From a virus: a stretch of DNA of 64,000 nucleotides. The notes under the pieces were generated by a model. The model was given only the letters and a program-made list of their open reading frames with translations. It did not search any database and had not been told where the DNA came from. The stretch spans positions 26,377 to 90,376 of the IMG/VR virus record IMGVR_UViG_3300009009_000003. The stretch is one strand, 5' to 3'. The position numbers and the translations under genes were made by a program. Numbering within the stretch: position 1 is the first letter of the stretch; each line of letters opens with the position of its first letter. Of the stretch, positions 12,119-31,702 are shown in pieces.

Positions 12119-12309
12119 TCTTTTATCTCCGCATCTCGGCAGCGTTTGAGTCGCTTGGGGTTCCAGTTTGTAGTTGGAAACTTATGGTTAAATAACCTAC
12201 AAAAATGACTGTCAAAGGTAAATCGTAACCAGTTACAACAAAGCCTTCCATTGCAGCACCTCGTCTTAGTGACATCCTTGCCTAAGTCAATCAATGGTCT
12301 TATCTTCAT
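12115..12309 (-). CDS. Small Cys-rich protein, paralogue 1
   Basis: A 64-residue protein starting MKIRPLIDLGKDVTKTRC, with Cys at about 18-19, 24-25, 37 and 57, probably a zinc site. It is homologous to the protein at 12619-12816 (shared MKIRxLIDLG start, PKRLK and CR near the end). Its start lies in a GGTGAAGGAATG junction and its end (EIKE) carries a weaker version of the same junction. Function unknown. Confidence 0.65.
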   Translation of the reverse strand: MKIRPLIDLGKDVTKTRCCNGRLCCNWLRFTFDSHFCRLFNHKFPTTNWNPKRLKRCRDAEIKE

Positions 12310-12322
12310 TCCTTCACCTCCT

Positions 12323-12622
12323 CTACCTATTTAACTCATCTCTTACAATAGACCTGACACGTTTAACGAGTGCATCAGTATCAATTCCAGCTCTCTTTAA
12401 ATCTTCTTCAAGAATCTTCAGTGGTATGTCCTGTATAAAATCATATTTGGCATCAAAAAAGGGGCTTTCGATTATGGTTACATTTTCTTTTACCACCAGT
12501 TCGCTTATTCTATACATACCTTTTGCCACTATCTCAACAGCCTTGTCATATTCTTTATTTCTTATTAATAGGGATAATGTAGCTAGCATATTATAGATTT
12601 GCTCATACTCTTGTATCGTCAT
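12323..12622 (-). CDS. Helical protein of unknown function
   Basis: A 99-residue protein, mostly helical (IQEYEQIYNMLATLSLLIRN, then KEYDKAVEIVAKGMYRISEL), ending in a basic helix (VKRVRSIVRDELNR). No Cys, no membrane span, no known motif. It is preceded by a GGAGGTGAAGGAATG junction overlapping the upstream stop. It separates the two copies of the Cys-rich paralogue, which suggests it inserted or travelled with them. Confidence 0.65.
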   Translation of the reverse strand: MTIQEYEQIYNMLATLSLLIRNKEYDKAVEIVAKGMYRISELVVKENVTIIESPFFDAKYDFIQDIPLKILEEDLKRAGIDTDALVKRVRSIVRDELNR

Positions 12623-12816
12623 TCCTTCACCTCCATCTCACGACAAATCTTAAGTCGCTTTGGTTCTTTGTTGCCAAATGGGAGAACTAGGTTAAAGGCC
12701 TCACAGTACACATGACCAGAAGACGTATCAAGGAACCGGCATTTTTTTAAACCATTTTTAGTAGCGCATTTTGTGGTAGTAACATCTCCCAAGTCAATCA
12801 ACATGCGTATCTTCAT
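12619..12816 (-). CDS. Small Cys-rich protein, paralogue 2
   Basis: A 65-residue protein starting MKIRMLIDLGDVTTTKC, with Cys at about 17, 26, 38 and 58, homologous to the protein at 12115-12309. Three of the Cys positions and the NKEPKRLKICRE segment align with the copy. The start sits in a GGTGAAGGAATG junction placed after, not over, the preceding stop. The EVKE end encodes GAGGTGAAGGA, the ribosome site of the downstream gene. Function unknown. Confidence 0.65.
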   Translation of the reverse strand: MKIRMLIDLGDVTTTKCATKNGLKKCRFLDTSSGHVYCEAFNLVLPFGNKEPKRLKICREMEVKE

Positions 12817-12828
12817 TCCTTCACCTCA

Positions 12829-13650
12829 TCATTCAGTTTTGGCATACACATATATAACGCCATTAACACATCCAAATAGTGCATAACCTTTTTGCCATAC
12901 TTGCCATGCTGCCTTAGAATATTTAATATGTTTCCTGTTTAGCTTTAAACCATGGCATATACAATTACATGCCACATAATTTGCAGCATCCCAGGCAGCA
13001 TACCTGGCATCATTCCAGGCAGCATCCCAGGCAGCATTCCAGGCATCATACCTGGCAGCATCACAGGCAGCATTACTGGCAGCATTACCGGCAGCATCAC
13101 AGGCAGCATTCCTGGCATCATACCTGGCAGCATTACTGGCAGCATCACAGGCAGCATTCCTGGCAGCATTACTGGCAGCATACCTGGCAGCATTACTGGC
13201 AGCATCACAGGCAGCATTCCTGGCATCATACCTGGCAGCATACCAAGTTTTTCCAGTAAACAGTTTCCATGACTTTAATGGTTTTCCGTCCGGTTTTAAA
13301 AATTGCACATGCTTGATACTATCAACAAAATCAATAGCATCTAACCACCATTTAGGATGTTGTACTGGCTTTAGCAACCGTGCCCCAACAAAAACCGATT
13401 TATCGTCCTGGTGTATAGCACCATCCAGTATTGGCTCCGCCTCATAGCAGATACAATTCCATTTGTACCATTGATAAGGTTTGGTGGTCAGATGGATTCC
13501 ACTACTACACATAACAATGTCATCATCAATCTTGTGCCATTTACCTGGTGTCCACTTTCCTTTTTTATCTTGCTTAGGCAGTGACCAGGTAAGATCACCG
13601 CCGTTGCATGACTTACCATCAACCAGTATTTTGTAATATTTGGTTTTCAT
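12829..13650 (-). CDS. DUF7666-type protein with 22 Ala-rich tetrapeptide repeats
   Basis: A 273-residue protein. The N-terminal domain (about 1-135) has the marks KILVDGKSCNGGDLTWSLP, KWTPGKWHK, CSSGIHLT and CYEAEP, which I recognise from a phage/bacterial family (DUF7666). It is followed by about 22 tandem four-residue repeats of the form [AD]A-x-[NDY] (AARY, DARN, AACD, AASN and so on, about residues 137-225) and a short C-terminal domain (SKAAWQVWQKGYALFGCVNG). Family members often carry such Ala-rich arrays, probably helical, of variable length. The array is a 12-bp minisatellite at DNA level. Function unknown; immunity roles proposed for relatives are unproven. Confidence 0.7.
   Translation of the reverse strand: MKTKYYKILVDGKSCNGGDLTWSLPKQDKKGKWTPGKWHKIDDDIVMCSSGIHLTTKPYQWYKWNCICYEAEPILDGAIHQDDKSVFVGARLLKPVQHPKWWLDAIDFVDSIKHVQFLKPDGKPLKSWKLFTGKTWYAARYDARNAACDAASNAARYAASNAARNAACDAASNAARYDARNAACDAAGNAASNAACDAARYDAWNAAWDAAWNDARYAAWDAANYVACNCICHGLKLNRKHIKYSKAAWQVWQKGYALFGCVNGVIYVYAKTE
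12975..13243 (-). repeat. 12-bp coding minisatellite (tetrapeptide array)
   Basis: About 22 units of 12 bp with the plus-strand core GGCAGCATtaCt/caCa/tcCt or GGCATCATACCT. It lies in the DUF7666-type gene and encodes [AD]A-x-[NDY]. Because the unit is a multiple of three without stops, long empty frames appear on both strands. Confidence 0.85.
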
Positions 13651-19766: not shown

Positions 19767-20702
19767 TTACTTGATGCAAGATAAAAGACATGCTGCTGAT
19801 AGACCTGCTTTCCCTGAATAAATAAAACTATCGGTAAAGTTTAGAATTATGGATGTAATGAACTCCGCTTTCTTTTCATTACTAGATAGTAGTACTTTAT
19901 TCAAATAACCAAGAATGGCATATCTGGCTGCTTCTGCTTCTCCATTATATCCACTTAATATATTTCTTATTTTGTCCCATTTTTCTGATGGGTTTTCTGT
20001 GGATATGAGTGCTCGGCAAATATCAATGGATAGATTCTCTCTTGTTACTACATGGGAAATACATTTAATTGCTTCTTCTTCAGATTCAATATCAATTACT
20101 GAATCAAGTAATGACAACGCCCTTCCGAAAGAACCTTCACAAGAAGCGGAGATTTCCTTCAGAAGATTGTTTAGTGGGTCATTAATTCCCTCCTTCTTTA
20201 ATATTCTTTCTAATCCTTTTATTATTGTTTCTCTGTCTAACAACTCCAATTCCCCACAAAAGCACCTTCGTTTTATAGTGATCTTAATCTTTTCGGGTTC
20301 AGTGGTGGAGAGTACATACAGAACATGCTTAGGTGGCTCTTCTAGCATAAGCAGAAGGGACTCTTGTGCAGCTCCAGTAATCTGGTGACACTCATCAAGC
20401 AAGTATAGTTTGTACTTCCCCATAATAGGTTTATAAGCAGTGCTTTCCCCAATTTCTCTTATTGTGTCAATCCCCCTTGTATTGGCTGCATTGTAAATAA
20501 AAAAATCACAATCAGCTATCTTAAAAAAGTTTTTTAATATGTAGGCCATTGTTGTCTTGCCACATCCTGAAGGGCCACTAAAGAAATACGAGTGTGGAAC
20601 ATCCTCCTTTCTATTCAAAACGGAAGTAAGGCTTGCTTTTGTTTTTTCATTTCCAATTAATTCAGTGTATGTTTTTGTTCTGTACTTTGTTTGCAAAGGC
20701 AT
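19767..20702 (-). CDS. Clamp loader ATPase (DnaX/RFC small-subunit-like)
   Basis: A 311-residue AAA+ protein: opening YRTKTYTELIGNEKTKASL, Walker A SGPSGCGKTTMAY (about 42-54), Walker B LYLLDECHQIT (about 99-109), sensor 1 VLYVLSTTEPEKI (about 126-138) and the arginine-finger SRC-like KRRCFCGELEL. The remaining 150 residues form the lid and a helical collar. It loads the sliding clamp encoded at 23493. Only one loader gene is seen, so it may form a homo-oligomer or work with another subunit outside the window. Its start overlaps the small zinc protein gene by 46 bases. Confidence 0.85.
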   Translation of the reverse strand: MPLQTKYRTKTYTELIGNEKTKASLTSVLNRKEDVPHSYFFSGPSGCGKTTMAYILKNFFKIADCDFFIYNAANTRGIDTIREIGESTAYKPIMGKYKLYLLDECHQITGAAQESLLLMLEEPPKHVLYVLSTTEPEKIKITIKRRCFCGELELLDRETIIKGLERILKKEGINDPLNNLLKEISASCEGSFGRALSLLDSVIDIESEEEAIKCISHVVTRENLSIDICRALISTENPSEKWDKIRNILSGYNGEAEAARYAILGYLNKVLLSSNEKKAEFITSIILNFTDSFIYSGKAGLSAACLLSCIK

Positions 20703-20950: not shown

Positions 20951-23491
20951 CTATTTCTTTCCATACCATCCTTCGTTTATGTCTGTGATTTCAAATTCAA
21001 TTTCTAAAGGAACTATTATCCAAGGGTTTTTCTTTATCAATTGATCAGTTCCCATGTACTTTATTATTTCTATAATTTCATCTTTTTCGGGTGGGAATAA
21101 GTCAATTACAATGGAATCGTGTATTTGCCCCACTATCTTCGATTTATAATTTCTTTTGGTTATTTTCTTATTCACATGAATTAAAGTCCAAAGAAGACAG
21201 TGAAAAGCAGTTCCTTGTATAGGATAATTTGTTACATCATTATATTTCATGTAGCCTGTAAACTCAAACCCAAAGAATGTTTTTATCCTACCGGTTCTTC
21301 TATACAAAGAATTTATGTTTTCCTTCCACATATCATAAACACAAAAACGTTCCCCCCAAAATATTCTTTCACACTTCTTGCAGTGTTCTAAAAAAAGCTC
21401 TAAAGATGTTATACCTTTAGTTTTCAGATGATCTTTTACAGTAGAACCAGATTTAAACTTTAGATTTAAAACCGCCATCCATATGTTTGTCCCACACTCT
21501 TTCCAATAGCTGCCGTAGAATTGTGGGAAAGTCCAACCATTTTTGCCATAGAACCTTATTTCTTTTGTAATCTCCTCTGGTTTGATCATAAACAAATCAC
21601 AGCAAACGTCCCTATGCATATCAGTGGTTGGATCTTTTATATATTTAATCATATTTGGATCTTTGTGATAACAAACAGAAATACGAACTTCTATTCCAGA
21701 GTAATCTGCTTCCAGTATTTGGTTTCCTGGAGTTGGAATAATTCCGGATCTAACAATTTTCTTTGCTTCTTCTTCTCTAACAGGGATGTTTTGAAAATTT
21801 GGTTTTGAAGAACTTGACCTGTATGATTTTGGATTCACTAAGTCAAAACAAGGGTGTATTTTACCATTACACACTTCTCTTTTAAACTGTGCTAAATAGG
21901 TTCCCTTTGTTTTCTCCAACCTTCTTAATTCCAAAAGCTTGTTTCCTGTTGGAAACTTACTGGCTATCTTTTCTATAGAATTTTTATCTAATGATAAATT
22001 TCCTTTTTCAGTATATCTTTTGCCTGCTCCCACTATTTCATAAAACAGAAATCCCAAATCTTTAGATGCCCCCCAATCAATCTTCTTATGCTTTATTTCA
22101 AAAAATTTCTTTGCTTCCACAGAATCGTTTAGTTCGTTCTTTAAATTTTCTATTCTTATGGAAAGTTCAATATCAGCTTTATTAAAGTACTCTTCATCTA
22201 CACAAATTCCGTTATACTCACAATCAGCAAGTGCAATTTGACCTTCAATAAACAAATCGGTTGCCGATGCCCAATCAGCATCTTGATATTTACTGTGCAA
22301 TTTATAAAGTTCTCTACTGTAGAAAGTATCAAGTGCATTATATCTGAGCAGCTTATCCAATGGTATTTTATCAACTGAATTAAATTCTGCCCCTTCTAAA
22401 AAATCTTCTACTTCTTTATTGTATGGTCGAACACCAAAGTTTAAATAGGTTTGGAATTTCAGATCACAAAACTTTTGTCTGTTGTCAATGCATCTTGCCC
22501 CGATCATGGTGTCCCATTCCCAATCTAATTTCTCAACACCAAGAATACATCTTGCCCAATTATGTTCAAACTTTAGGTTGTGTGCAACCAACCTTTTGGA
22601 CTCCATTATATTCTTTAAATAGAGTTTTATTTCTTTTGTTTCAGCCTCAGAGAAATAGTTTCGATAATTAATTGGAAAAGAATACACATTGCCCTGTAGA
22701 TTTGCTAGGGAAACTGATGCTATGAAGTGTCCTGATCTATAAGGCCGTAGTCCTGAAGTTTCAAAATCAATAAATAAAGGGGAGTTTACATTAAGTATTT
22801 CTTTTAAAGCATTGATTATTTCATTAAATTGATATAATTCAAAAATAACATTATCTGTTTTTGGTTCAGGTTTTATTTTTTCTCTTAGATTTAAAGAAGC
22901 TTCTTTTAGATCATGGATAAAGCAAGATAAAAGATTTTCATCATTTTCGTTTCTCATTATAAATGATGGGTGAAATAATACATTAACAATGGAGTTAGTT
23001 TTCCTATCAGGTATAGTTAATCCTCTAAATCTGGATATGGAAGTATCCTTAAAATCTTCACCAAGAAATGATTCTAAGGAAACATTTCCCAGAAGCCATA
23101 TCTTTTCAGGTTGTAATTTTTCAATTATATTATTTACAAATGGTCGGCAATACTTTATGTGGTCATCCGTGGGGGTTTCACTTTTTCCTGGATAACAATT
23201 TACAGCATTAATTTTCCAAAAATCTCTATCTAAATCCAGTCCAATTGATTTAAGTTTACTTCTTAAAAACTCTCCAGCTCTTCCTATTAGCTGAGTTCCC
23301 AATCTATCTTCATTTTCTCCAGGTGCTTCAGCAATTATCAAACATTTTTTCTCCCCCCTTCCTGTATAGTTCATTTTGGGGGTGATACAGGTGTGGAGTA
23401 ATCCACACCTGTAGCAGTTAGAATTATTATCAGGATCAAAATTTTCCTTGGACCATTCTTCCATTTGTTTTTTGGTAAATAAAGAATTCAC
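20951..23491 (-). CDS. Family-4 uracil-DNA glycosylase fused to a family A DNA polymerase
   Basis: An 846-residue fusion. Residues 1-205 form a UDG of family 4: CYRCGLLHTC cluster Cys, IIAEAPGENEDRLGTQLIGR with the catalytic-pocket motif, INAVNCYPGKSETPT and LFHPSFIMR. Residues about 225-420 are a 3'-5' exonuclease (FIDFETSGLRPY, AHNLKFEHNW, YNALDTFYSRELY). The polymerase follows with motif A LEADYSGIEVRIS (about 600), a motif B region KNGWTFPQFYGSY (about 650) and motif C GQIHDSIVIDL (about 795). The glycosylase could remove uracil at the fork. Coupled by a 1-base gap to the sliding clamp. Confidence 0.85.
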   Translation of the reverse strand: MNSLFTKKQMEEWSKENFDPDNNSNCYRCGLLHTCITPKMNYTGRGEKKCLIIAEAPGENEDRLGTQLIGRAGEFLRSKLKSIGLDLDRDFWKINAVNCYPGKSETPTDDHIKYCRPFVNNIIEKLQPEKIWLLGNVSLESFLGEDFKDTSISRFRGLTIPDRKTNSIVNVLFHPSFIMRNENDENLLSCFIHDLKEASLNLREKIKPEPKTDNVIFELYQFNEIINALKEILNVNSPLFIDFETSGLRPYRSGHFIASVSLANLQGNVYSFPINYRNYFSEAETKEIKLYLKNIMESKRLVAHNLKFEHNWARCILGVEKLDWEWDTMIGARCIDNRQKFCDLKFQTYLNFGVRPYNKEVEDFLEGAEFNSVDKIPLDKLLRYNALDTFYSRELYKLHSKYQDADWASATDLFIEGQIALADCEYNGICVDEEYFNKADIELSIRIENLKNELNDSVEAKKFFEIKHKKIDWGASKDLGFLFYEIVGAGKRYTEKGNLSLDKNSIEKIASKFPTGNKLLELRRLEKTKGTYLAQFKREVCNGKIHPCFDLVNPKSYRSSSSKPNFQNIPVREEEAKKIVRSGIIPTPGNQILEADYSGIEVRISVCYHKDPNMIKYIKDPTTDMHRDVCCDLFMIKPEEITKEIRFYGKNGWTFPQFYGSYWKECGTNIWMAVLNLKFKSGSTVKDHLKTKGITSLELFLEHCKKCERIFWGERFCVYDMWKENINSLYRRTGRIKTFFGFEFTGYMKYNDVTNYPIQGTAFHCLLWTLIHVNKKITKRNYKSKIVGQIHDSIVIDLFPPEKDEIIEIIKYMGTDQLIKKNPWIIVPLEIEFEITDINEGWYGKK

Positions 23492-23492
23492 T

Positions 23493-24548
23493 TTACTCCT
23501 CCGTCATCAATGCAACAAGAACGGTGAGTTTTTTGTTATCATCACAGAAATAAGCCGTGTTATTTGATATTGACAATTTAAAGGAATGGGTGTTTTTAAT
23601 TACCTTTTGAAGATATGTTTTGTTTACTATTATATTAATATCATTATCAGGGTCACTTTCCATTTCCAAAACAGATTCAAGTGAACCTGCTTCACCAGAT
23701 GAAGCCAGCATTTTTATTTTGTTTTCTTCTTTGATTAATCTTATTCCGTGGTCTTTATCAAAGAAGGATAAGAATGGGTTGAGTGCTTTTGTGAATTCAT
23801 CTTTATTAAATTTATACACATGAGCGAAAAAATTATCCTCTTTTAGTAAAGAGGCGACATTTGGAAATTTTCCATTTACCAATCGAACAGCATAATACCC
23901 CAAATCACCGCATAAATAAAGAATTGATTTATCTTTAACAAAGTAAGAGGAAATGGATTTTCCTTTGTCCATACTATATAGGGAAAACAGAATTTCAGAA
24001 GGAACCAATAGTTCCTCTTCAAAAATAATATTGTCTATGTTGTATATACTAAACACTTTTTCATTTGTTGACTCAATTTTGTTTTCATAAATGTGGTAGT
24101 TGTTAAGTGTGCCCTTAATTGGATCGTTTGTGGTAGATGCACAGCACAGATACACACCATTCCAAAAATCTTCAGGTAAACTAATTCTACAACCTTCAGC
24201 AAATCCTTTTTGACATGTGGCAACTGCTTCATAAAATAAATCTGAGCATAGTAAGGTGGGGAGCTTTGCTTTGATAGAGGATGCTTTTATTATAAGTTCA
24301 TTTCCATTTAATGATATATCCATTTCACTATCGGCAATATTAGAGATTATGGAAAAAAACCTATCACAGTTAACAGCACAATCAAACCCTAAGTTTATTT
24401 TCTCTTCACCGTAAACAAGATAATTAAAATAATAAATCTTATCAGTACACAGATTAATACACTTGGTTTCCTCAGAAACACCAAAACCTTTAATGCCAGA
24501 ACGTAACTTTTTGACTATGTTTTTAACTTCTTCTGTTTTTACAATCAT
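23493..24548 (-). CDS. DNA polymerase sliding clamp, DnaN-like
   Basis: A 351-residue protein with the three-domain size of a bacterial beta clamp. Family-like segments are NELIIKASSIKAKLPTLL (about 83-100), YYAVRLVNGKFPNV (about 218-231, where DnaN has R-L-x-D-G-x-F-P) and the closing strand LTVLVALMTEE. The DNA-facing basic residues are less obvious than in cellular clamps, and identity overall is low. The position between polymerase and helicase and the presence of a clamp loader support the call. An alternative is a divergent PCNA-like clamp. Confidence 0.7.
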   Translation of the reverse strand: MIVKTEEVKNIVKKLRSGIKGFGVSEETKCINLCTDKIYYFNYLVYGEEKINLGFDCAVNCDRFFSIISNIADSEMDISLNGNELIIKASSIKAKLPTLLCSDLFYEAVATCQKGFAEGCRISLPEDFWNGVYLCCASTTNDPIKGTLNNYHIYENKIESTNEKVFSIYNIDNIIFEEELLVPSEILFSLYSMDKGKSISSYFVKDKSILYLCGDLGYYAVRLVNGKFPNVASLLKEDNFFAHVYKFNKDEFTKALNPFLSFFDKDHGIRLIKEENKIKMLASSGEAGSLESVLEMESDPDNDINIIVNKTYLQKVIKNTHSFKLSISNNTAYFCDDNKKLTVLVALMTEE

Positions 24549-24549
24549 G

Positions 24550-24798
24550 TTAATTACCTTTCTGTAAAACTTCTTTTTTGTTTCGTTCTATTATTGCCAT
24601 TGTGTATTCAAAATCCTTAATAAGGTTTCTAATTGGGGATATTGCTTCACGCCTTCTTATTTCAACCTCAACATCATCACAAGAAATCTTTACGGGACTG
24701 TTTAGATTGTTTTCTCTTATCAAAGCAAGCTGGTTTACAATTTTCTGATATTCTTTTAAATCAGCATCCATTTTATTTATTTTATCCATGAATCCCAT
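24550..24798 (-). CDS. Small helical protein in the replication operon
   Basis: An 82-residue charged helical protein (MDKINKMDADLKEYQKIVNQ at the start, a short strand region with KISCDDVEVEIRRRE, and a Lys-rich helix at the end). No motif recognised. It is one base upstream of the clamp gene and overlaps the next gene by 17 bases, so it is certainly co-translated with replication proteins. It may be a small adaptor of the replisome; this is only position-based. Confidence 0.6.
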   Translation of the reverse strand: MGFMDKINKMDADLKEYQKIVNQLALIRENNLNSPVKISCDDVEVEIRRREAISPIRNLIKDFEYTMAIIERNKKEVLQKGN

Positions 24799-25027
24799 TT
24801 TGTTCCTCCTTTATAGTTTCTGATAAAATTCTCAATCGTTTCGACCATCTGTCAACATCCATTTCCTCTATTTTTGTTTCTACTTCATCCAGAAAATCCT
24901 CAAATTGTTTTAAGAAAACCATTATATTATCTTTTCTTTTTACTAATGGTTTTCTATTTAAAAACTCAGTGATGGAATCACTTTTGCCGTATAAATCATA
25001 AGAAAAATTTGTTTTCTTTTTTATCAT
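24782..25027 (-). CDS. Small protein of unknown function
   Basis: An 81-residue protein with a basic N-terminus (MIKKKTNFSYDLYGKSDS) and an amphipathic helical C-terminal half (FLKQFEDFLDEVETKIEEMD, then WSKRLRILSETIKEEQ). No Cys and no membrane span. It overlaps the genes on both sides (17 and 32 bases). Function unknown; part of the replication operon. Confidence 0.6.
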   Translation of the reverse strand: MIKKKTNFSYDLYGKSDSITEFLNRKPLVKRKDNIMVFLKQFEDFLDEVETKIEEMDVDRWSKRLRILSETIKEEQNGIHG

Positions 25028-25427
25028 TTGTTTGTTCCTTTTTAGGGGTTAGTTTTAAAAATTCCAAAACTCTTTTGTCAAAGATACAGAACAGTTGACT
25101 GGAATAGAGAGGGCTTAAAATGGACATAAATTCAGGAATGTATGTTTCTTTCTTCCAGTCAACATTTACATTAACAAAATCAAAACCCCTTCGTTTAAAT
25201 ACTTTCATTGCTCTGGATAAAGCAATAAATTTGCCTATCCACCTGTTTTCATTATCTTTATTACTTTTTCTTGAATATCCAAAGCACAGCTCTTCAGTGG
25301 GTCTTTTTATGTAGATAACGGCTACAGTGGTGTTTCCAAAACGTCTTATTCGCAACTTACTTTCCGGACAAATTTTCTCCATATGCTCTTTCATCTTTTT
25401 ATACTTCAATTTGTAATTTTGCGTCAT
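24996..25427 (-). CDS. Protein of unknown function, replication operon
   Basis: A 143-residue alpha/beta protein: a basic coiled start (KLKYKKMKEHMEKICPESK), strands LRIRRFGNTTVAVIYI and a helix RWIGKFIALSRAMKVFKRRG, then a Lys-rich tail. It has no catalytic pattern I can name. Its last 32 bases overlap the following gene. Conserved position beside helicase and clamp suggests a DNA-related role, which is not shown by sequence. Confidence 0.6.
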   Translation of the reverse strand: MTQNYKLKYKKMKEHMEKICPESKLRIRRFGNTTVAVIYIKRPTEELCFGYSRKSNKDNENRWIGKFIALSRAMKVFKRRGFDFVNVNVDWKKETYIPEFMSILSPLYSSQLFCIFDKRVLEFLKLTPKKEQTNDKKENKFFL

Positions 25428-25437
25428 ATTAACCCCT

Positions 25438-26943
25438 TTAATTAAAATCAGAATCCAAATGCGCCTGACCTATGGTTAGTTGTTGTAAAACTGTTACCGA
25501 GTCCGTTTCCATAAAATCTTTGTGCCTATGTGCCATTACGGAAATCCTCATTATACCAAAATCTTTTTCTTCTCTTGTTTGGTTCAAAGCAAGCATACAG
25601 TCAATGTGTCCTAATTTTCCTTTCCATCTTGCTGTGTGTTTTTGGGTTACTACAATGGCTTCCAGTGAATCTCCTGTAGCTTGGGTTCCTGTTACTACCA
25701 AACAATTTCTTTGTGAAGCAAGTCTAGCCAAAGCCATCCATGTTTCATCCTCCTTTAATACTCCAGTAAGTTCATCTCTTTCGGGTTTAAGAATATCAGC
25801 ATGGTCAACAGCAATTAACTTGGGTACATATCCCTCAGTTTTTTCTAAGATATCCAAATCCCTTTCTAAATCAGAAATGTTTGCTGAAAATCGTGGGTAG
25901 GCTTTCATTCGATAGTACTTACTAAAAAACTGCTCTATTCCGGACATCTTGTTTATAATTGTGCTTTCATTGTATTCTGGGACATTAATTTCATCATACC
26001 ATATATCTGGCTCAAATTCTGAATGGTTAATAGTTCTGCAATAGTCGCATGTTTTGTATCGTATATCTCTGGAATATGTAGGTTTTGTTCCATCTGGATT
26101 AAGAAGAATTCTGTCATTGGTTCTTTCCGGAAGTTTACAAGAACCCGATTGGTTTTTGGCACAATCAAAAACAGGATACAAAACAGATTCCGAGTTCTCA
26201 GATGATGGTACCAACCTCTTATAAAATCTTTCCTTCATCTGCTCAATGGTCATTTCAAGAGAAAAGAATACTACAGGCAGTCTGGAAAACATCCCCATGA
26301 TACAAAACTCTTGAAGGTAAAATGTTTTTCCTCTTTTATAAGGTCCGGTAATACCAACAAGCCATCCTGCTTCAAATGGACCGACAAAGTTCCCCAACAT
26401 CCCAGGTAATTTTAAAAGGGGTTCTGTTTTATGGTCGAAGTGCTTCTGTATTTCTTTGCTTTCAAGCGGATTAATCCAATTTGAAGTGATCTTTGATATT
26501 TTTTTAAAAGCCAAAGCTTCATCTTCAGCCTTTTCCAATTGATCTTCTTCAAGAAGGATTTTTATGTTATTGGCTCTTATTTCTAAATCACGTTTTTTGA
26601 AATAGTTGATTGTTTGGTCTGTTAAATAATTAATATTTATTGATTTTTCTATGTAATTACTTTCATCGAGTTCAATTAGGATTTTTTTAATAGCTTCCTT
26701 TTGATCTTCAGATAAAAGGTGTTCTCTTTCATAGAATAAATCAAAAATATCATCTTTTATACAATCATCATATTCCAGAAAGTGGTCGTAGCACCAACAC
26801 ACCATCCTCTTGACATGGTCATCTCTGAAGTAGATTGGTTTCAATATTGACGTTACATTATTAGTAAACTCCTTTGATAGAATTAGGCCAAATAGTATCC
26901 TTTTCTCTAAGGATGTGTCTACCTTTACCCTTTTTATGCTCAT
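25438..26943 (-). CDS. Replicative DnaB-like helicase
   Basis: A 501-residue protein. The N-terminal helical domain (about 1-165) is followed by a RecA-type motor: Walker A ITGPYKRGKTFYL (about 197-209), FFSLEMTIEQM (about 226-236, as in DnaB), Walker B PKLIAVDHADIL (about 380-391) and GTQATGD, AHRHKDF near the end. An insertion of about 100 residues between the Walker motifs contains four Cys (CAKNQSGSC, CDYC), probably a zinc site, which is unusual for DnaB. It unwinds DNA ahead of the polymerase and should interact with the initiator and primase encoded next to it. Confidence 0.85.
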   Translation of the reverse strand: MSIKRVKVDTSLEKRILFGLILSKEFTNNVTSILKPIYFRDDHVKRMVCWCYDHFLEYDDCIKDDIFDLFYEREHLLSEDQKEAIKKILIELDESNYIEKSININYLTDQTINYFKKRDLEIRANNIKILLEEDQLEKAEDEALAFKKISKITSNWINPLESKEIQKHFDHKTEPLLKLPGMLGNFVGPFEAGWLVGITGPYKRGKTFYLQEFCIMGMFSRLPVVFFSLEMTIEQMKERFYKRLVPSSENSESVLYPVFDCAKNQSGSCKLPERTNDRILLNPDGTKPTYSRDIRYKTCDYCRTINHSEFEPDIWYDEINVPEYNESTIINKMSGIEQFFSKYYRMKAYPRFSANISDLERDLDILEKTEGYVPKLIAVDHADILKPERDELTGVLKEDETWMALARLASQRNCLVVTGTQATGDSLEAIVVTQKHTARWKGKLGHIDCMLALNQTREEKDFGIMRISVMAHRHKDFMETDSVTVLQQLTIGQAHLDSDFN

Positions 26944-26945
26944 AC

Positions 26946-28742
26946 TTACCTTTGTGCATAAATGGACATTCTAGGACTTGTTTTTTCACTACTCATTATC
27001 ATGTTTTTGTTCAGCCAACTAGGTATTCTTTGTGAGAATGTATATGGTGAACACAAAACACCTGTTGTTACTTGTTTAAGTTTCTCATCACTAATAACAG
27101 AGGAAAATAAGATAGTTGCAGCTTTTTTTGGAGTATCAATATACAAAGGTTTAATTAATGTTTTGTTTTTTTCAATAAATTCTGTAAGTAAGTTTCCTGT
27201 TTTAATAAAATTATTTTTATCTAGCTGAGAAAAATCTACGGAAGCTCCACCAAGTATTTTTTCCACAAATAGTTTTTTTATCTCATTCGTAATTTCAGGA
27301 TTCGTTTCTATTAGTTCCGGTTCCATTGGCTGCGGTTCGTTTTCAAAATAGTAAATAAACAGTGATTTTGTAGTTGTTCCGTTTGAATAGATGGATAGAA
27401 GAAATTTGTCTAAAGTTCTGTAAGAGTTTAGTTTTACTTTATTTTCTGGTTTATACTTATCTGATAAGGCTTTTTCAAAGTTTTCTGCTGAGATGATGAA
27501 GTCTTCTAAGGTAAATTTATTGTTATAGTATCGTTTAAATTCAGGTAAGCTGTTGAATAATGTTCCTTTTTGCAATCTTTTTAGGTATGTGAGAGTAGTT
27601 TGATAAGATTTGGTTTCCGTTCCTGGTAGTTTAAATCCTTTGCTGATCCATACGTTTATGAAATTTTTTAAAGAGTCAGAAATAGGCTTAGAATCAATTT
27701 TCTCATCGTTATTGGTGTCAAGTGTAGTGTCTGTGATAGTTTTTTGAAATTTGGCCGGTTTCCGTTCGTTTTTAAGGGGTTCAGGATTAATGTCAAGGTC
27801 ACTTTTTACGTTTTGGTTTAAATTATCGCCCACGGGCACGTTTAAAATAGTCTGTTTAGTTTCGTCAAGGTTTGGTTTAGGCAACGTTTTGTCTTTTTTT
27901 AAATTATCTTTTTCTAAGTCATAAATCGTTTCATCAAGGTTTGGTTTAGGCAACGTTTTATTGTTTTCTAAATTCTTGTCATTCTCCAATTTTTGTTCTG
28001 GCAATGTGTTATTTTCTTCTTTTTTGAGTTTTAAAAAATTTTTACAGTATTTACTTCGTAAATACATTTGGTGTAAAATACTAATATTATTATTAATACT
28101 TATAATTAAATATATATCTTTAGATATATATTTAGTAAACGATTTTTGTAAGTCGTTGATTTTGCTTAGTATTTCTTCAGACTCAATTTTTTCGTCACTA
28201 AAAATGTTGGTCATTTGGCCAACTTTTTGGAAAATCAAGTTAAAGTCGTCGTAAGTATCTGAATTCCCTTCCTCTGGAAAGTTTCCAAAAAGAGACTTTT
28301 TGCCTGACCGGTACGTTTTTGGACTAGTGGACACTTCTGTCAACCGGTACGTTTTTGTACCACCAACCGGTACGTTTTTGTACCACCAACCGGTACGTTT
28401 TTGGACTAGTTGACCGGTACGTTTTTGGACTAGTTGACCGGTACGTTTTTGGACCCCCTCTTGCTCTAACTTTTTGTTCAGTTCTTCTAAATTAACTCTA
28501 TAGGATGTTGTTTTACCGTTTTCCAAATGGCGTTCAATTATATTAGAATCAATTAGATTATTAATAAGATTAATAACTGAGCTTTTATTTTTAATAAAAC
28601 ATATTTCTTTTATTTGGTTTAAACTTAGGTGTAGGTAGTTTTCCCCACTAGGCAGGAGTGTTTGTATAAGGAGAGCTTCTCTCAATCCTACACCATTAGC
28701 TAGTTCTACATCGAAAGAAGTTATGAGGGGATTTTTTTTCAT
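26946..28742 (-). CDS. Replication initiator with internal iteron origin (lambda O-like plan)
   Basis: A 598-residue protein. The N-terminus is a winged helix (GLREALLIQTLL, LSLNQIKEICFIKNKSSVIN, IIERHLENGKTTSYRV, about 18-90). Residues about 97-147 are read from an array of 23/24-bp DNA repeats (KRTGQLVQKRTGQL, then other frames). A long charged linker with two KTLPKPNLDET repeats leads to a C-terminal helical domain (about 330-590) that may bind the helicase encoded 2 bases downstream. This arrangement (DNA-binding N-terminus, iterons in the gene, helicase-binding C-terminus, next to the helicase gene) is that of lambda O. The role is inferred from this plan; sequence similarity to O was not tested. 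Confidence 0.65.
   Translation of the reverse strand: MKKNPLITSFDVELANGVGLREALLIQTLLPSGENYLHLSLNQIKEICFIKNKSSVINLINNLIDSNIIERHLENGKTTSYRVNLEELNKKLEQEGVQKRTGQLVQKRTGQLVQKRTGWWYKNVPVGGTKTYRLTEVSTSPKTYRSGKKSLFGNFPEEGNSDTYDDFNLIFQKVGQMTNIFSDEKIESEEILSKINDLQKSFTKYISKDIYLIISINNNISILHQMYLRSKYCKNFLKLKKEENNTLPEQKLENDKNLENNKTLPKPNLDETIYDLEKDNLKKDKTLPKPNLDETKQTILNVPVGDNLNQNVKSDLDINPEPLKNERKPAKFQKTITDTTLDTNNDEKIDSKPISDSLKNFINVWISKGFKLPGTETKSYQTTLTYLKRLQKGTLFNSLPEFKRYYNNKFTLEDFIISAENFEKALSDKYKPENKVKLNSYRTLDKFLLSIYSNGTTTKSLFIYYFENEPQPMEPELIETNPEITNEIKKLFVEKILGGASVDFSQLDKNNFIKTGNLLTEFIEKNKTLIKPLYIDTPKKAATILFSSVISDEKLKQVTTGVLCSPYTFSQRIPSWLNKNMIMSSEKTSPRMSIYAQR
27865..27959 (-). repeat. Direct repeat of 26 bp in the initiator linker
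   Basis: TCAAGGTTTGGTTTAGGCAA and six following bases occur at 27865-27890 and 27934-27959 (69 bp apart), encoding KTLPKPNLDE twice. A third, degenerate copy (encoding LPEQKLEND) follows near 27990. Confidence 0.8.
28081..28140. other. AT-rich segment beside the iterons, candidate unwinding element
   Basis: Only 6 of these 60 bases are G or C, with runs such as TATATATCTTTAGATATATA. It lies about 170 bp from the iteron array on the helicase side, as the AT-rich part of the lambda origin does. Confidence 0.5.
28307..28451 (-). repeat. Six iterons (CAAAAACGTACCGGT), candidate replication origin
   Basis: Six perfect copies of ACCGGTACGTTTTTG (plus strand) start at 28307, 28343, 28366, 28389, 28413 and 28437. 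Spacing is 36, 23, 23, 24 and 24 bp, so copies fall in different reading frames and encode KRTGQ, KNVPV or KTYR. Conservation of DNA but not of peptide points to a protein-binding role. Confidence 0.85.
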
Positions 28743-28768
28743 AGGGTACTTTTTTTTGATTAAGTAAT

Positions 28769-28796
28769 ACTATAACACGCCTATAAAATTTTTCAA
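28769..28796 (-). promoter_or_regulatory. Promoter for the initiator gene
   Basis: Minus strand TTGAAA (28791-28796), 16-base spacer ending TGT, TATAGT (28769-28774). It is in the 54-base gap between primase and initiator genes and shares spacer length and TGT with the promoters at 19730 and 32365. Confidence 0.65.
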
Positions 28797-29708
28797 CTAA
28801 TAAATTTTAGAAAAAACGTCTTTTCTGATGTTTTTTACGTCTTCATCGGATAATTCGGCAGGGTCTTTTTTGTCTATTGTATAAATGTAAACATCTTTAA
28901 CAAAAGAACAAAGGGAATTTGCTAGTTTATTGGATGCTTCTTCAGCATCAGAATCAAGTAATATAAATATCCTATTGATATTACTTAATTTTAAGATTTG
29001 TTCGGATGTGAACTTTTTTCCTAGTATAGCAACGCACCCTTTACCTATTCTCCATACGTCGGTTGTTCCCTCTACAACAATAGCTGTGTTTGTTATAGTG
29101 TCTATATTGTATAGACAGTCTTTTATGTTTAGAACAGATTTTTCATTTGGACAGTTTTTATATTTTGTTACCCCAATAAAATTTCCAGGTGTTCTACCAA
29201 TGTAAGATACTAGATTGTGATGATAATAAATGGGAATATAAATTCTGTTTTTGAATCCCATTGATGATGGAGGAAAGGATGCAATTTTATAATCCATTTT
29301 TAATTTATTAACGTCAAATCCACGTGATTCCAGATAATCTGAATGGATATTTGTAAGGGGGATTGTTTTTGGAATTTCAAATTCTTGTCTATTTTCCAAT
29401 TCTTCTTTAAAGGATTGAAGTTCCCCAGAGGAATAGGATGAGATAATTTTCTTGGCTTTTTCATATGAGCATCGTTCAATATTTTTTATGTACTTAAGGA
29501 AGCTGCCCCTTGTGTTGCATCTCCAGCATGAGATGTTTCCGCTATAAAGATTAATTCCCAAGTGACTTGATGGGTCTCCATCAGGACAAAAAGGACAGTT
29601 AACGCCGATCCAATTATTGGATGATATGTTTTTTCCTTCGGTAAGAAAGAGAATTCTTTTGTCATTTAAGTATTTTTTTACGTCTATTTTTTCTATCAGC
29701 ACATTCAA
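28797..29708 (-). CDS. DnaG-like primase
   Basis: A 303-residue primase. The zinc-binding domain has CPFCPDGDPSSHLGIN (from about 38) and SCWRCNTRGSF (about 61-71); a linker with EIPKTIPL and YLESRGFD follows; the TOPRIM core shows NRIYIPIYY, AIVVEGTTDVWR (about 206-217, metal Glu) and IFILLDSDAEEA (about 250-261, metal Asp pair). No helicase domain is fused; the helicase is separate at 25438. At about 300 residues it lacks the long C-terminal helicase-binding domain of bacterial DnaG. It overlaps the upstream HTH gene by 47 bases. Confidence 0.85.
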   Translation of the reverse strand: MNVLIEKIDVKKYLNDKRILFLTEGKNISSNNWIGVNCPFCPDGDPSSHLGINLYSGNISCWRCNTRGSFLKYIKNIERCSYEKAKKIISSYSSGELQSFKEELENRQEFEIPKTIPLTNIHSDYLESRGFDVNKLKMDYKIASFPPSSMGFKNRIYIPIYYHHNLVSYIGRTPGNFIGVTKYKNCPNEKSVLNIKDCLYNIDTITNTAIVVEGTTDVWRIGKGCVAILGKKFTSEQILKLSNINRIFILLDSDAEEASNKLANSLCSFVKDVYIYTIDKKDPAELSDEDVKNIRKDVFSKIY

Positions 29709-30150
29709 ATTCCTTTTGTCTAAGTACTTCTCTTATGTTTCCCAAAGTTACTTTTTTGTTTGTCTCTTTTTGAATAGACCAGTTTTTAACCTTGCTTTCT
29801 CTTATATCTGCTGCTCTGGCCATTTGTGGCAGTGACCACCCACAAATTTTTAAACCTTCTATGCATTTTGTTACTGATACTTTGGGGTTATTGGTAAACG
29901 CTTTCAAAAATTTTCTCTTGTCCGGAGTAAGTTTAGGGTACTTTTTATATTTGCCCAAAGGTCTTACTTTGATTTTTACATCTTTCAACCATCCTGTTAA
30001 AAGATATGTAGAAACACCCAACAACTCTGCTATTTCCGGAATACTCATTTCTTTGTATAGTTTTTTTAAGCAGGAAGCCAGTGATCTATATCCTAATTCA
30101 TCGGCTTTGCGTGTGGCTCGTAGGAAGTTGCTGCTGTTAATTAATTTCAT
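29662..30150 (-). CDS. HTH DNA-binding protein, two HTH motifs
   Basis: A 162-residue basic protein with MSIPEIAELLGVSTYLLTGW (about 35-54) and SLPQMARAADIRESKVKNWS (about 106-125), both helix-turn-helix in form, and a strongly basic end (CADRKNRRKKILK). Its plan matches the two-HTH protein at 7711. It is coupled to the zinc protein upstream by a 4-base overlap. Probably a regulator or nucleoid-type protein; target unknown. Confidence 0.65.
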   Translation of the reverse strand: MKLINSSNFLRATRKADELGYRSLASCLKKLYKEMSIPEIAELLGVSTYLLTGWLKDVKIKVRPLGKYKKYPKLTPDKRKFLKAFTNNPKVSVTKCIEGLKICGWSLPQMARAADIRESKVKNWSIQKETNKKVTLGNIREVLRQKEFECADRKNRRKKILK

Positions 30151-30362
30151 GATCTAAATCTTGTCTTTTTTTGAACATCTTTTCCGTCTACAACACACAA
30201 ATATATCTGCTCATTGCATTTATAAAAACCTGTGTTTTTTTGGGGATAAAAAACTCGATGCTTTTTTTTACAGACTACACAATCAATATATTTCTTTGGT
30301 TTTTCTATTTCTTTAGATTTTTCAAGTTCCTCTTTTGTGAGAAAGAAATAATTTGGTTTCAT
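30147..30362 (-). CDS. Small zinc-binding protein
   Basis: A 71-residue protein. The start at 30362 is chosen because its ATG overlaps the helicase stop (ATGA); an upstream in-frame ATG would extend it into the helicase gene. CVVCKKKHRV (about 28) and YKCNEQIYLC (about 48) form a likely zinc ribbon, with basic ends. Function unknown. Confidence 0.6.
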   Translation of the reverse strand: MKPNYFFLTKEELEKSKEIEKPKKYIDCVVCKKKHRVFYPQKNTGFYKCNEQIYLCVVDGKDVQKKTRFRS

Positions 30363-31702
30363 ATCCAATTGTTTTCCATATAAATACAAAGTCTGCTTCC
30401 AAAGTGGTCTATCAAATAGGTGTGTGATGGATCAAAGAAATCGTATATTATGACCTCTTCTTTATCAGAAGTTCTTCGCAAACCTCTTCCTATTGCCTGA
30501 ATTGTGGGTATTTCCCCTTTCCCACCTCCTGCGTTTATTATTATGTTCAATGAAGGTATGTTTATTCCTTCTCTCCATACAGAAGTGACAATAACCACAT
30601 CCAGTGTTTTGTTGTTTAAAAGCCTTTTTGTGTGTTCTCTTGATTCGCTTTCAGTAGCACCATTTACAAAACTACTTAGCAATTGGTTTTGTAAACACAT
30701 TTGGTGCAATCGTTCTCCATGCTCAATTTTATTAACCAGAATAAGAACTGTTTTTTTCTCATTTCTTGCTTTCTTAACTACTTCAAGAATAGAGTCATTT
30801 CTTTTGTTATTAAGCAGTATTCCATATTCTATAACATCATTATAATTTCTGAGCTTCTTTACTTTTTCATTTATGGGAAGCTTTACTATCTTTATTTTGG
30901 GCTTTGCTAAAATTTCTAGCTTAGAGGCTTCATTTATTGTTTGCTGTGCAATTACAGGACCTAATAAACCCTCAATTGCTAGAATTTTTTCAGGATCAGT
31001 CGGTGGAGTTGCCGTAAACCCTAATCTAATCGGGGCGTGTATTTTATTTAATACATATTCATATGACGGTGATGAGGCATGATGAGCTTCATCCACAATA
31101 ATTGCATTATAGTTATTGTGTTCAACAACCATGTTTTTATATGTTTGTATTGTGGAGACAACTATGCCTTGTGTAGGTGTATTCTTTGTTGTGCCATCAA
31201 TATACATCACGTTTTTAAATTCTTTTGAGAACTCATCATAAAGCTGTTTTACTAGACTTATGGTGTGGGCAAGTATTAAAACGTTTGTTTCTTTCGGCAA
31301 GCAAGACAAAATTGCCATTTGGAGAACTGTTTTTCCTGATCCTGTCGGGGCAAGTATTAAACCCCTCTTCATGTTTGATTTTATAAAAGATTCTACTAAC
31401 AAACTCTGGTCTTCTCTAATCGTAAGATTTTTTAGATGAGGGCTTGAAAGAGTTATGTCCAAATCATATAAAATTTCTAGGTCTGTGCCAGGAAATTTAT
31501 TTACTATCCGAGACACCAATCCTGTGTAGAAGTAAAGTTTATTGCCATCCCTTTTATATACAGGCTTTCTCCACATCCTTCTTTCTTTTGTAAATCTTGT
31601 CTTTTGATAGAAGATTGCGTCGTGGGATAAAATGGGATGTATGTATCTCATTTCAGAGACATTAACAGAACTTCTAACTGGATTGTGAATGGTTATTTTC
31701 AT
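30359..31702 (-). CDS. SF2 DNA helicase, UvsW/DEAH type
   Basis: A 447-residue helicase with the motif series: Q-like REDQSLLVESFI, motif I LAPTGSGKTVLQ (about 114-125), Ia LAHTISLV, II IIVDEAHHAS (about 200-209), III GFTATPPT (about 227-234), IV LILVNKIEHGE, V TSVWREGINIPSL (about 381-393) and VI QAIGRGLRRTS (about 412-422). The N-terminal 95 residues are an accessory domain. This is the layout of T4 UvsW and related phage helicases that process forks and branched recombination intermediates. Confidence 0.85.
   Translation of the reverse strand: MKITIHNPVRSSVNVSEMRYIHPILSHDAIFYQKTRFTKERRMWRKPVYKRDGNKLYFYTGLVSRIVNKFPGTDLEILYDLDITLSSPHLKNLTIREDQSLLVESFIKSNMKRGLILAPTGSGKTVLQMAILSCLPKETNVLILAHTISLVKQLYDEFSKEFKNVMYIDGTTKNTPTQGIVVSTIQTYKNMVVEHNNYNAIIVDEAHHASSPSYEYVLNKIHAPIRLGFTATPPTDPEKILAIEGLLGPVIAQQTINEASKLEILAKPKIKIVKLPINEKVKKLRNYNDVIEYGILLNNKRNDSILEVVKKARNEKKTVLILVNKIEHGERLHQMCLQNQLLSSFVNGATESESREHTKRLLNNKTLDVVIVTSVWREGINIPSLNIIINAGGGKGEIPTIQAIGRGLRRTSDKEEVIIYDFFDPSHTYLIDHFGSRLCIYMENNWI

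What the first reader, a model, noticed from the sequence alone, without database searches (positions are those of the whole stretch)
28081..28455. Lambda-ori-like origin: six iterons inside the replication initiator gene, conserved as DNA across three reading frames
Six perfect copies of ACCGGTACGTTTTTG start at 28307, 28343, 28366, 28389, 28413 and 28437. The mix of 23- and 24-bp spacing means the same DNA is read as KRTGQ, KNVPV or KTYR, so selection acts on DNA, not protein. The host gene has a winged-helix N-terminus, lies next to the DnaB-like helicase gene, and a 60-bp segment with 10 percent GC lies about 170 bp away on the helicase side. This is the plan of lambda O/ori (established knowledge); the initiator and origin roles here are inferred. 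The unequal repeat length also means copy-number change would shift frame, so the array must be under constraint.
Basis: partly seen in the sequence, partly recalled or inferred. Interest (0 to 1): 0.85.

Follow-up and report, generated by a model that had tools for sequence, protein, structure and literature searches.

The report
Phage replication origin inside initiator gene
A large, little-known phage carries six identical copies of a short DNA word and a very easily melted stretch inside the gene for its probable replication starter protein, the same layout that phage lambda and some plasmids use as their replication origin.

Summary
Six perfect ACCGGTACGTTTTTG copies lie at the stated places and are read in all three frames; shuffled sequence gives none. 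The conserved unit is 18 bp (ACCGGTACGTTTTTGKAC, 17 of 18 positions invariant; all 10 flanking columns vary), with short inverted arms around an A/T tract, as in lambda iterons and RepA_N boxes. The AT-rich block at 28071-28147 is the least stable 60- and 100-bp segment of the 90,376-bp record. The gene lies between primase and DnaB-like helicase in a phage with its own replisome. Its N-terminus models as a winged helix; its C-terminus is homologous to genes at the same place in related viruses, two of which match replication-initiation families. Best explanation: a lambda/pSK41-style origin embedded in the initiator gene, iterons bound by the encoded protein; neither binding nor origin activity is shown. 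Lambda's own iterons are also read in three frames, so this is a new member of a known kind. The array was not found in any relative, so conservation between genomes could not be tested.

The parts
26946..28742 (-). Putative replication initiator gene, 598 aa, ATG start, no recognisable Shine-Dalgarno
   Evidence: ORF; position between primase and helicase conserved in relatives; relatives match initiator profiles
28452..28742 (-). N-terminal winged-helix domain (codons 1-97), predicted iteron-binding domain
   Evidence: AlphaFold2 mean pLDDT 86.3, H-H-H-H-E-E-H order; Foldseek matches to MarR and RepA_N N-terminal domains in PDB and to phage replisome organizers in BFVD
28307..28454 (+). Iteron array, codons 97-146 of the gene
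28307..28324 (+). Iteron copy 1, ACCGGTACGTTTTTGGAC
28343..28360 (+). Iteron copy 2, ACCGGTACGTTTTTGTAC (perfect GGTAC/GTACC arms with the next base)
28366..28383 (+). Iteron copy 3, ACCGGTACGTTTTTGTAC
28389..28406 (+). Iteron copy 4, ACCGGTACGTTTTTGGAC
28413..28430 (+). Iteron copy 5, ACCGGTACGTTTTTGGAC
28437..28454 (+). Iteron copy 6, ACCGGTACGTTTTTGGAC
28071..28147 (.). Putative DNA unwinding element; holds the least stable 60-bp segment of the 90,376-bp record (the least stable 100 bp starts at 28032); contains a 13-bp perfect inverted repeat (28107-28134)
28533..28634 (.). Second AT-rich segment on the other side of the array (second to third least stable in the record), inside the winged-helix codons
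28206..28223 (.). Inverted repeat GTTGGTCATTTGGCCAAC between iterons and AT-rich block; role unknown
26949..27665 (-). C-terminal domain shared with initiator-position genes of related viruses; inferred helicase/primase-contact domain
   Evidence: phmmer E about 1e-7, alignment A3; structure model poor
25438..26943 (-). DnaB-like replicative helicase
   Evidence: PHROG 19, E 3e-37
28797..29708 (-). DnaG-type primase
   Evidence: PHROG 47, E 2e-35
30359..31702 (-). UvsW-like helicase
   Evidence: PHROG 16, E 3e-74
23493..24548 (-). Sliding clamp (DNA polymerase processivity factor)
   Evidence: PHROG 947, E 2e-23
20951..23491 (-). Uracil-DNA-glycosylase/family A DNA polymerase fusion
   Evidence: Pfam UDG and DNA_pol_A
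19767..20702 (-). Clamp loader
   Evidence: PHROG 5846, E 4e-52

Best explanation
This is the replication origin of a large tailed phage, built into its own initiator gene. The encoded protein binds the six iterons through its N-terminal winged helix. Each iteron is an 18-bp site with short inverted arms around an A/T tract. The nucleoprotein complex bends the array and melts the AT-rich block at 28071-28147. The C-terminal domain then recruits the phage's own DnaB-like helicase, and the phage primase, clamp and polymerase follow. Shown: repeats, frames, AT minimum, winged-helix model, gene context and homology of the gene to initiator-position genes. Inferred: binding, melting, helicase loading and origin activity. 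Because the array sits in a linker between two domains, the peptide made by the iterons is probably tolerated rather than selected, as reported for pSK41 Rep, whose ori-encoded central part can be deleted (PMC5703833).
For: Iterons: six copies, none expected; 1/18 variable columns in the unit against 10/10 in the flanks, Fisher p = 8e-7, while the reading frame changes, so the DNA and not the peptide is what is alike. AT block: minimum duplex stability of the whole record at both 60 and 100 bp. Protein: winged helix by AlphaFold2, structural matches to RepA_N N-terminal domains and phage replisome organizers. Context: UvsW, primase, initiator, helicase, clamp, polymerase in the same order in distant relatives. 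Homology: the C-terminal domain is shared with the genes in G003, G004 and G005. The G003 gene matches 'replication initiation protein' at E 4e-15 and the G005 gene 'replication initiation O-like' at E 5e-5. In G001 and G005 the least stable segment held also lies inside that gene. Layout matches lambda: 18-bp iterons spaced 20, 24 and 23 bp, read in phases 0, 2, 2 and 1, AT-rich block on the 3' side (PMC5043065).
Against: No iterons could be found in the equivalent genes of the relatives, and no other sequence carries the array, so conservation across genomes is untested. Fourfold-site GC skew shows no switch at the locus. No DnaA boxes stand out. Winged helices are generic, and the Foldseek E-values against the PDB are weak (best 3e-3). 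Initiator linkers rich in Asn, Lys and Ile raise AT content without any origin role.
Confidence: 0.8

Rival explanations
1. The array is a binding site for the encoded protein, but it serves to regulate the gene's own expression or copy number (a roadblock, titration or handcuffing site), and the origin lies elsewhere.
For: Iterons of plasmids often double as control sites; the gene lacks a Shine-Dalgarno sequence and may be tightly regulated. The strand-bias test gave no origin signal.
Against: The array lies about 290 bp inside the gene, away from the start, and next to the weakest duplex of the record; no comparable array of perfect, unevenly spaced short repeats next to an AT minimum was seen elsewhere in the record.
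Confidence: 0.1
2. The repeats are a recent tandem duplication in a disordered linker with no role as DNA.
For: Two pairs of neighbouring spacers are identical (CACCA twice, TAGTTG twice), a sign of unit duplication. Relatives have no array. A second in-frame repeat (LPKPNLDET) lies in the same linker.
Against: The 18-bp units stay identical while spacers have diverged and changed length and frame (p = 8e-7). A simple duplication would not spare the unit only.
Confidence: 0.05
3. The array is bound by another protein, such as the HTH protein at 29662-30150 or a partition or packaging protein.
For: A second HTH gene lies two genes upstream; direct repeats of this size also occur in partition sites (general knowledge).
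Against: No partition genes were identified among the genes profiled; position inside the initiator gene and next to the AT block fits an origin better.
Confidence: 0.05

Closest known systems
Phage lambda O gene and ori-lambda (and the six-iteron origins of lambdoid phages)
   Same: 18-19 bp iterons in the middle of the initiator gene between DNA-binding and C-terminal domains; spacing 20-24 bp; read in all three frames; inverted arms around AAAAC; AT-rich melting region on the 3' side; six iterons known in some lambdoid phages (PMC5043065, PMC7466680)
   Different: No detectable sequence similarity to O (no Pfam or PHROG O match); the phage has its own helicase and whole replisome instead of a loader for the host's DnaB; AT block 160 bp away instead of adjacent; arms here are shorter and imperfect in four of six copies
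RepA_N plasmid initiators such as pSK41 Rep
   Same: N-terminal winged helix, Rep boxes centrally inside the rep gene, dispensable linker encoded by the ori, C-terminal domain for replisome contact; boxes are direct repeats with inverted arms converging on an A tract (PMC5703833, PMC7145576); RepA_N structures 4pql and 5kbj are among the Foldseek hits
   Different: No RepA_N Pfam match; Foldseek similarity is no better than to MarR regulators; element is a phage with its own replisome
SPO1-type (Herelleviridae) gp20.1/Rep genes
   Same: Gene between UvsW helicase and DnaB-like helicase; in phage LysYB1 an N-terminal HTH precedes a second domain
   Different: No detectable homology of the C-terminal domain (hhalign probability 1-2%); no iterons in the gene

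Membership tests
Iteron origin embedded in the initiator gene (type of layout) | Several direct copies of an initiator-size site inside the initiator coding sequence | tested here: met
Iteron origin embedded in the initiator gene (type of layout) | Nearby AT-rich, easily melted segment | tested here: met
   least stable segment of the record
Iteron origin embedded in the initiator gene (type of layout) | The encoded protein binds the repeats | not testable with these tools
   needs gel shift or footprinting
Iteron origin embedded in the initiator gene (type of layout) | Replication starts there | tested here: inconclusive
   no fourfold-site GC-skew switch, but small genome and few informative sites
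Lambda O family | Sequence match to the O / O-like profiles | tested here: not met
   no match for the window protein in Pfam or PHROGs; a related virus's gene in the same place does match an O-like PHROG
RepA_N (PF06970) | Match to the RepA_N domain | tested here: not met
   no Pfam match; only generic winged-helix structural similarity
HTH_36 phage initiators (PF13730) | HTH_36 match at the N-terminus | tested here: not met
   absent in the window protein; present in the G006 gene (L115) above cut-off and in the G003 gene (L112) just below it
Initiator group of this phage clade | Gene between primase and helicase with the shared C-terminal domain | tested here: met

The most novel reading that the evidence does not exclude
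A large phage with a complete replisome of its own starts replication from a lambda-style iteron origin carried in its initiator gene, and the initiator loads the phage's own helicase directly without a separate loader. Its iterons, unlike the gene, turn over so fast that related viruses have none recognisable.
Probability: 0.4. Interest if true: 0.55.

Novelty: new member of a known kind. Interest (0 to 1): 0.42.

Why it matters
How large phages with their own replication machinery start replication is known for only a few models such as T4 and T7. Here a compact region of about 700 bp gives a precise, testable origin with its likely initiator, in a branch of phages for which no experimental work was found here. 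In-gene, multi-frame iterons could also serve as a signature for finding origins in uncultured phages. The layout itself is known from lambda and pSK41, so the gain is a new case and not a new principle.

Tried and rejected
Initiator protein against phages and viral contigs: no match. Iteron DNA against phages and plasmids: none. A pair of 12-bp iteron cores in viral contigs: one hit, a 15-bp tandem array in an unrelated phage. A pair of 11-bp iteron cores in 84,980 bacterial and archaeal genomes: 20 stretches, none in a recognisable initiator gene of this kind. Idea that the iteron word is shared by many Firmicutes initiators (from memory): not borne out. Looser iteron scan in the relatives' genes, with lambda O as positive control that the scan does detect: nothing above shuffles except AT-rich low-complexity words in G005, SPO1 and EalM132. 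GC-skew switch at the locus: not seen. Homology of the C-terminal domain to SPO1 gp20.1: not found. AlphaFold of the C-terminal domain: too poor to search. A scan for more homologs with the C-terminal profile only returned two already known.

Full report
The window is bases 26377-90376 of a 90,376-base virus record. It carries a leftward replication block: clamp loader, UDG-polymerase fusion, sliding clamp, DnaB-like helicase, the gene in question, DnaG-type primase and a UvsW-like helicase, followed by rightward packaging and head genes. Most genes have strong Shine-Dalgarno sequences of the AGGAGGTG type. The nearest named phages by polymerase are Herelleviridae, at about 25% identity.

Observation. 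A shuffled window gives at most 3 matches even with three mismatches allowed, and shuffles of the region never give more than 4 copies under any setting of a local scan in which the real array gives 6. The copies fall in three phases of the gene and give KRTG, KNVP and KTYR. Alignment of the copies shows two further invariant bases, so the unit is ACCGGTACGTTTTTGKAC. One of its 18 columns varies, while all ten flanking columns vary (Fisher p = 8e-7; the unit was delimited by looking at the same copies, and the copies are not independent if they arose by duplication, so this p is a guide only). Read with the next base, the unit is GGTAC-GTTTTT-GKACY, with short inverted arms around a T tract. 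The arms are perfect in copies 2 and 3 only.

Copies 4 to 6 are 24 bp apart, so loss or gain of one of them leaves the frame intact. Only the 23-bp units carry a frame penalty. Lambda's four iterons are likewise read in phases 0, 2, 2 and 1, so reading in several frames is a property of the known model and not a novelty.

Melting region. The 60-bp and 100-bp segments of lowest nearest-neighbour stability in the whole record start at 28075 and 28032. The array is flanked on its other side by the second (60 bp) or third (100 bp) least stable segment of the record, at about 28535. A chance placement of the global minimum within 250 bp of the array has a probability of about 0.7% (about 650 of 90,376 positions; own arithmetic). 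Among four relatives with 20-28 kb held, the least stable segment lies inside the corresponding gene in two (G005, G001), the second least stable 60-mer does so in a third (G003), and in the fourth (G004) the minimum lies some 420 bp upstream of the gene.

The protein. The first 97 residues model as a winged helix with mean pLDDT 86, although one of five models stands out (the others 61-70) and only four sequences were in the alignment. PDB matches are generic winged helices, MarR regulators and RNA polymerase III subunits first, with RepA_N initiator domains (4pql, 4pt7, 5kbj) among the top 40. Viral matches include proteins named replisome organizer and replication initiator. No family profile recognises the protein as an initiator. 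Polymerase relatives in IMG/VR at 37-45% identity led to five distinct genes at the same place between primase and helicase. Three of them share the C-terminal domain with the window gene (phmmer E 5e-8 for G003 and 1e-8 for G004, weaker for G005). The G003 gene matches replication initiation proteins (E 4e-15) and DnaD-like loaders (E 4e-9). The G005 gene and the gene of G006 match O-like or initiator families. This chain is the main support for calling the gene an initiator.

What does not fit or is missing. None of those relatives has iterons that the scan can see, although the same scan finds lambda's imperfect ones. No database sequence found holds the array; the tools may leave out records very near the window's own. 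Fourfold-site GC skew shows no switch. So the array is not shown to be conserved between genomes, and function rests on anatomy.

Mechanism proposed. The initiator's winged helix binds the six sites, the complex bends the array through its A tracts, and the AT-rich block on the 3' side of the gene melts. The C-terminal domain brings in the phage helicase encoded by the next gene, and the phage primase, clamp and polymerase complete the fork. No separate helicase-loader gene was identified among the genes profiled (not all genes were), so direct loading is possible but untested. The steps from binding onward are inference from lambda (PMC5043065) and pSK41 (PMC5703833). In both, the origin lies in the coding sequence between the DNA-binding and C-terminal parts, and in pSK41 the ori-encoded linker is dispensable to the protein.

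Verdict. It is a new member of a known layout, carried by an initiator with no initiator-profile match of its own and by a phage with a full replisome of its own.

Noticed in passing
window 12306-12830: Several spaced copies of TCATTCCTTCACC (GGTGAAGGAATGA on the - strand, seven of the core 12-mer in the record), which look like a repeated ribosome-binding site and start region of small leftward genes.
   Followed up: no
window 12990-13200, ORF 12829-13650 -: Long imperfect 12-bp repeat array (GGCAGCATTACT type) inside a leftward ORF, so a repeat protein.
   Followed up: no
window 27859-27974: A 69-bp in-frame repeat (TLPKPNLDET) in the linker of the same initiator gene.
   Followed up: no
window 28742: The initiator gene has no Shine-Dalgarno sequence, while most genes of this phage have clear ones.
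   Followed up: partly
window 20951-31702: Gene order UvsW, primase, initiator, helicase, clamp, UDG-polymerase is kept in distant uncultured relatives (G001, G003-G005) while the initiator N-terminus is swapped or highly diverged.
   Followed up: partly
L127 1660-1846 and L136 1979-2064: Prevotella veroralis has 22-bp spaced arrays with the core TAAAAACGTACC outside long ORFs; apparently unrelated to this phage.
   Followed up: no
L012 4159-4207: A 15-bp tandem array in an unrelated phage contains the same 12-bp core (CAAAAACGTACC), read as RYVFD repeats on the other strand.
   Followed up: partly
L008 4086-4173 and L010 4174-4233: In SPO1 and Exiguobacterium phage EalM132 a tract of almost pure A/T (2-5% GC over 60 bp) lies just upstream of the gp20.1-type gene, a possible melting site there.
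   Followed up: no
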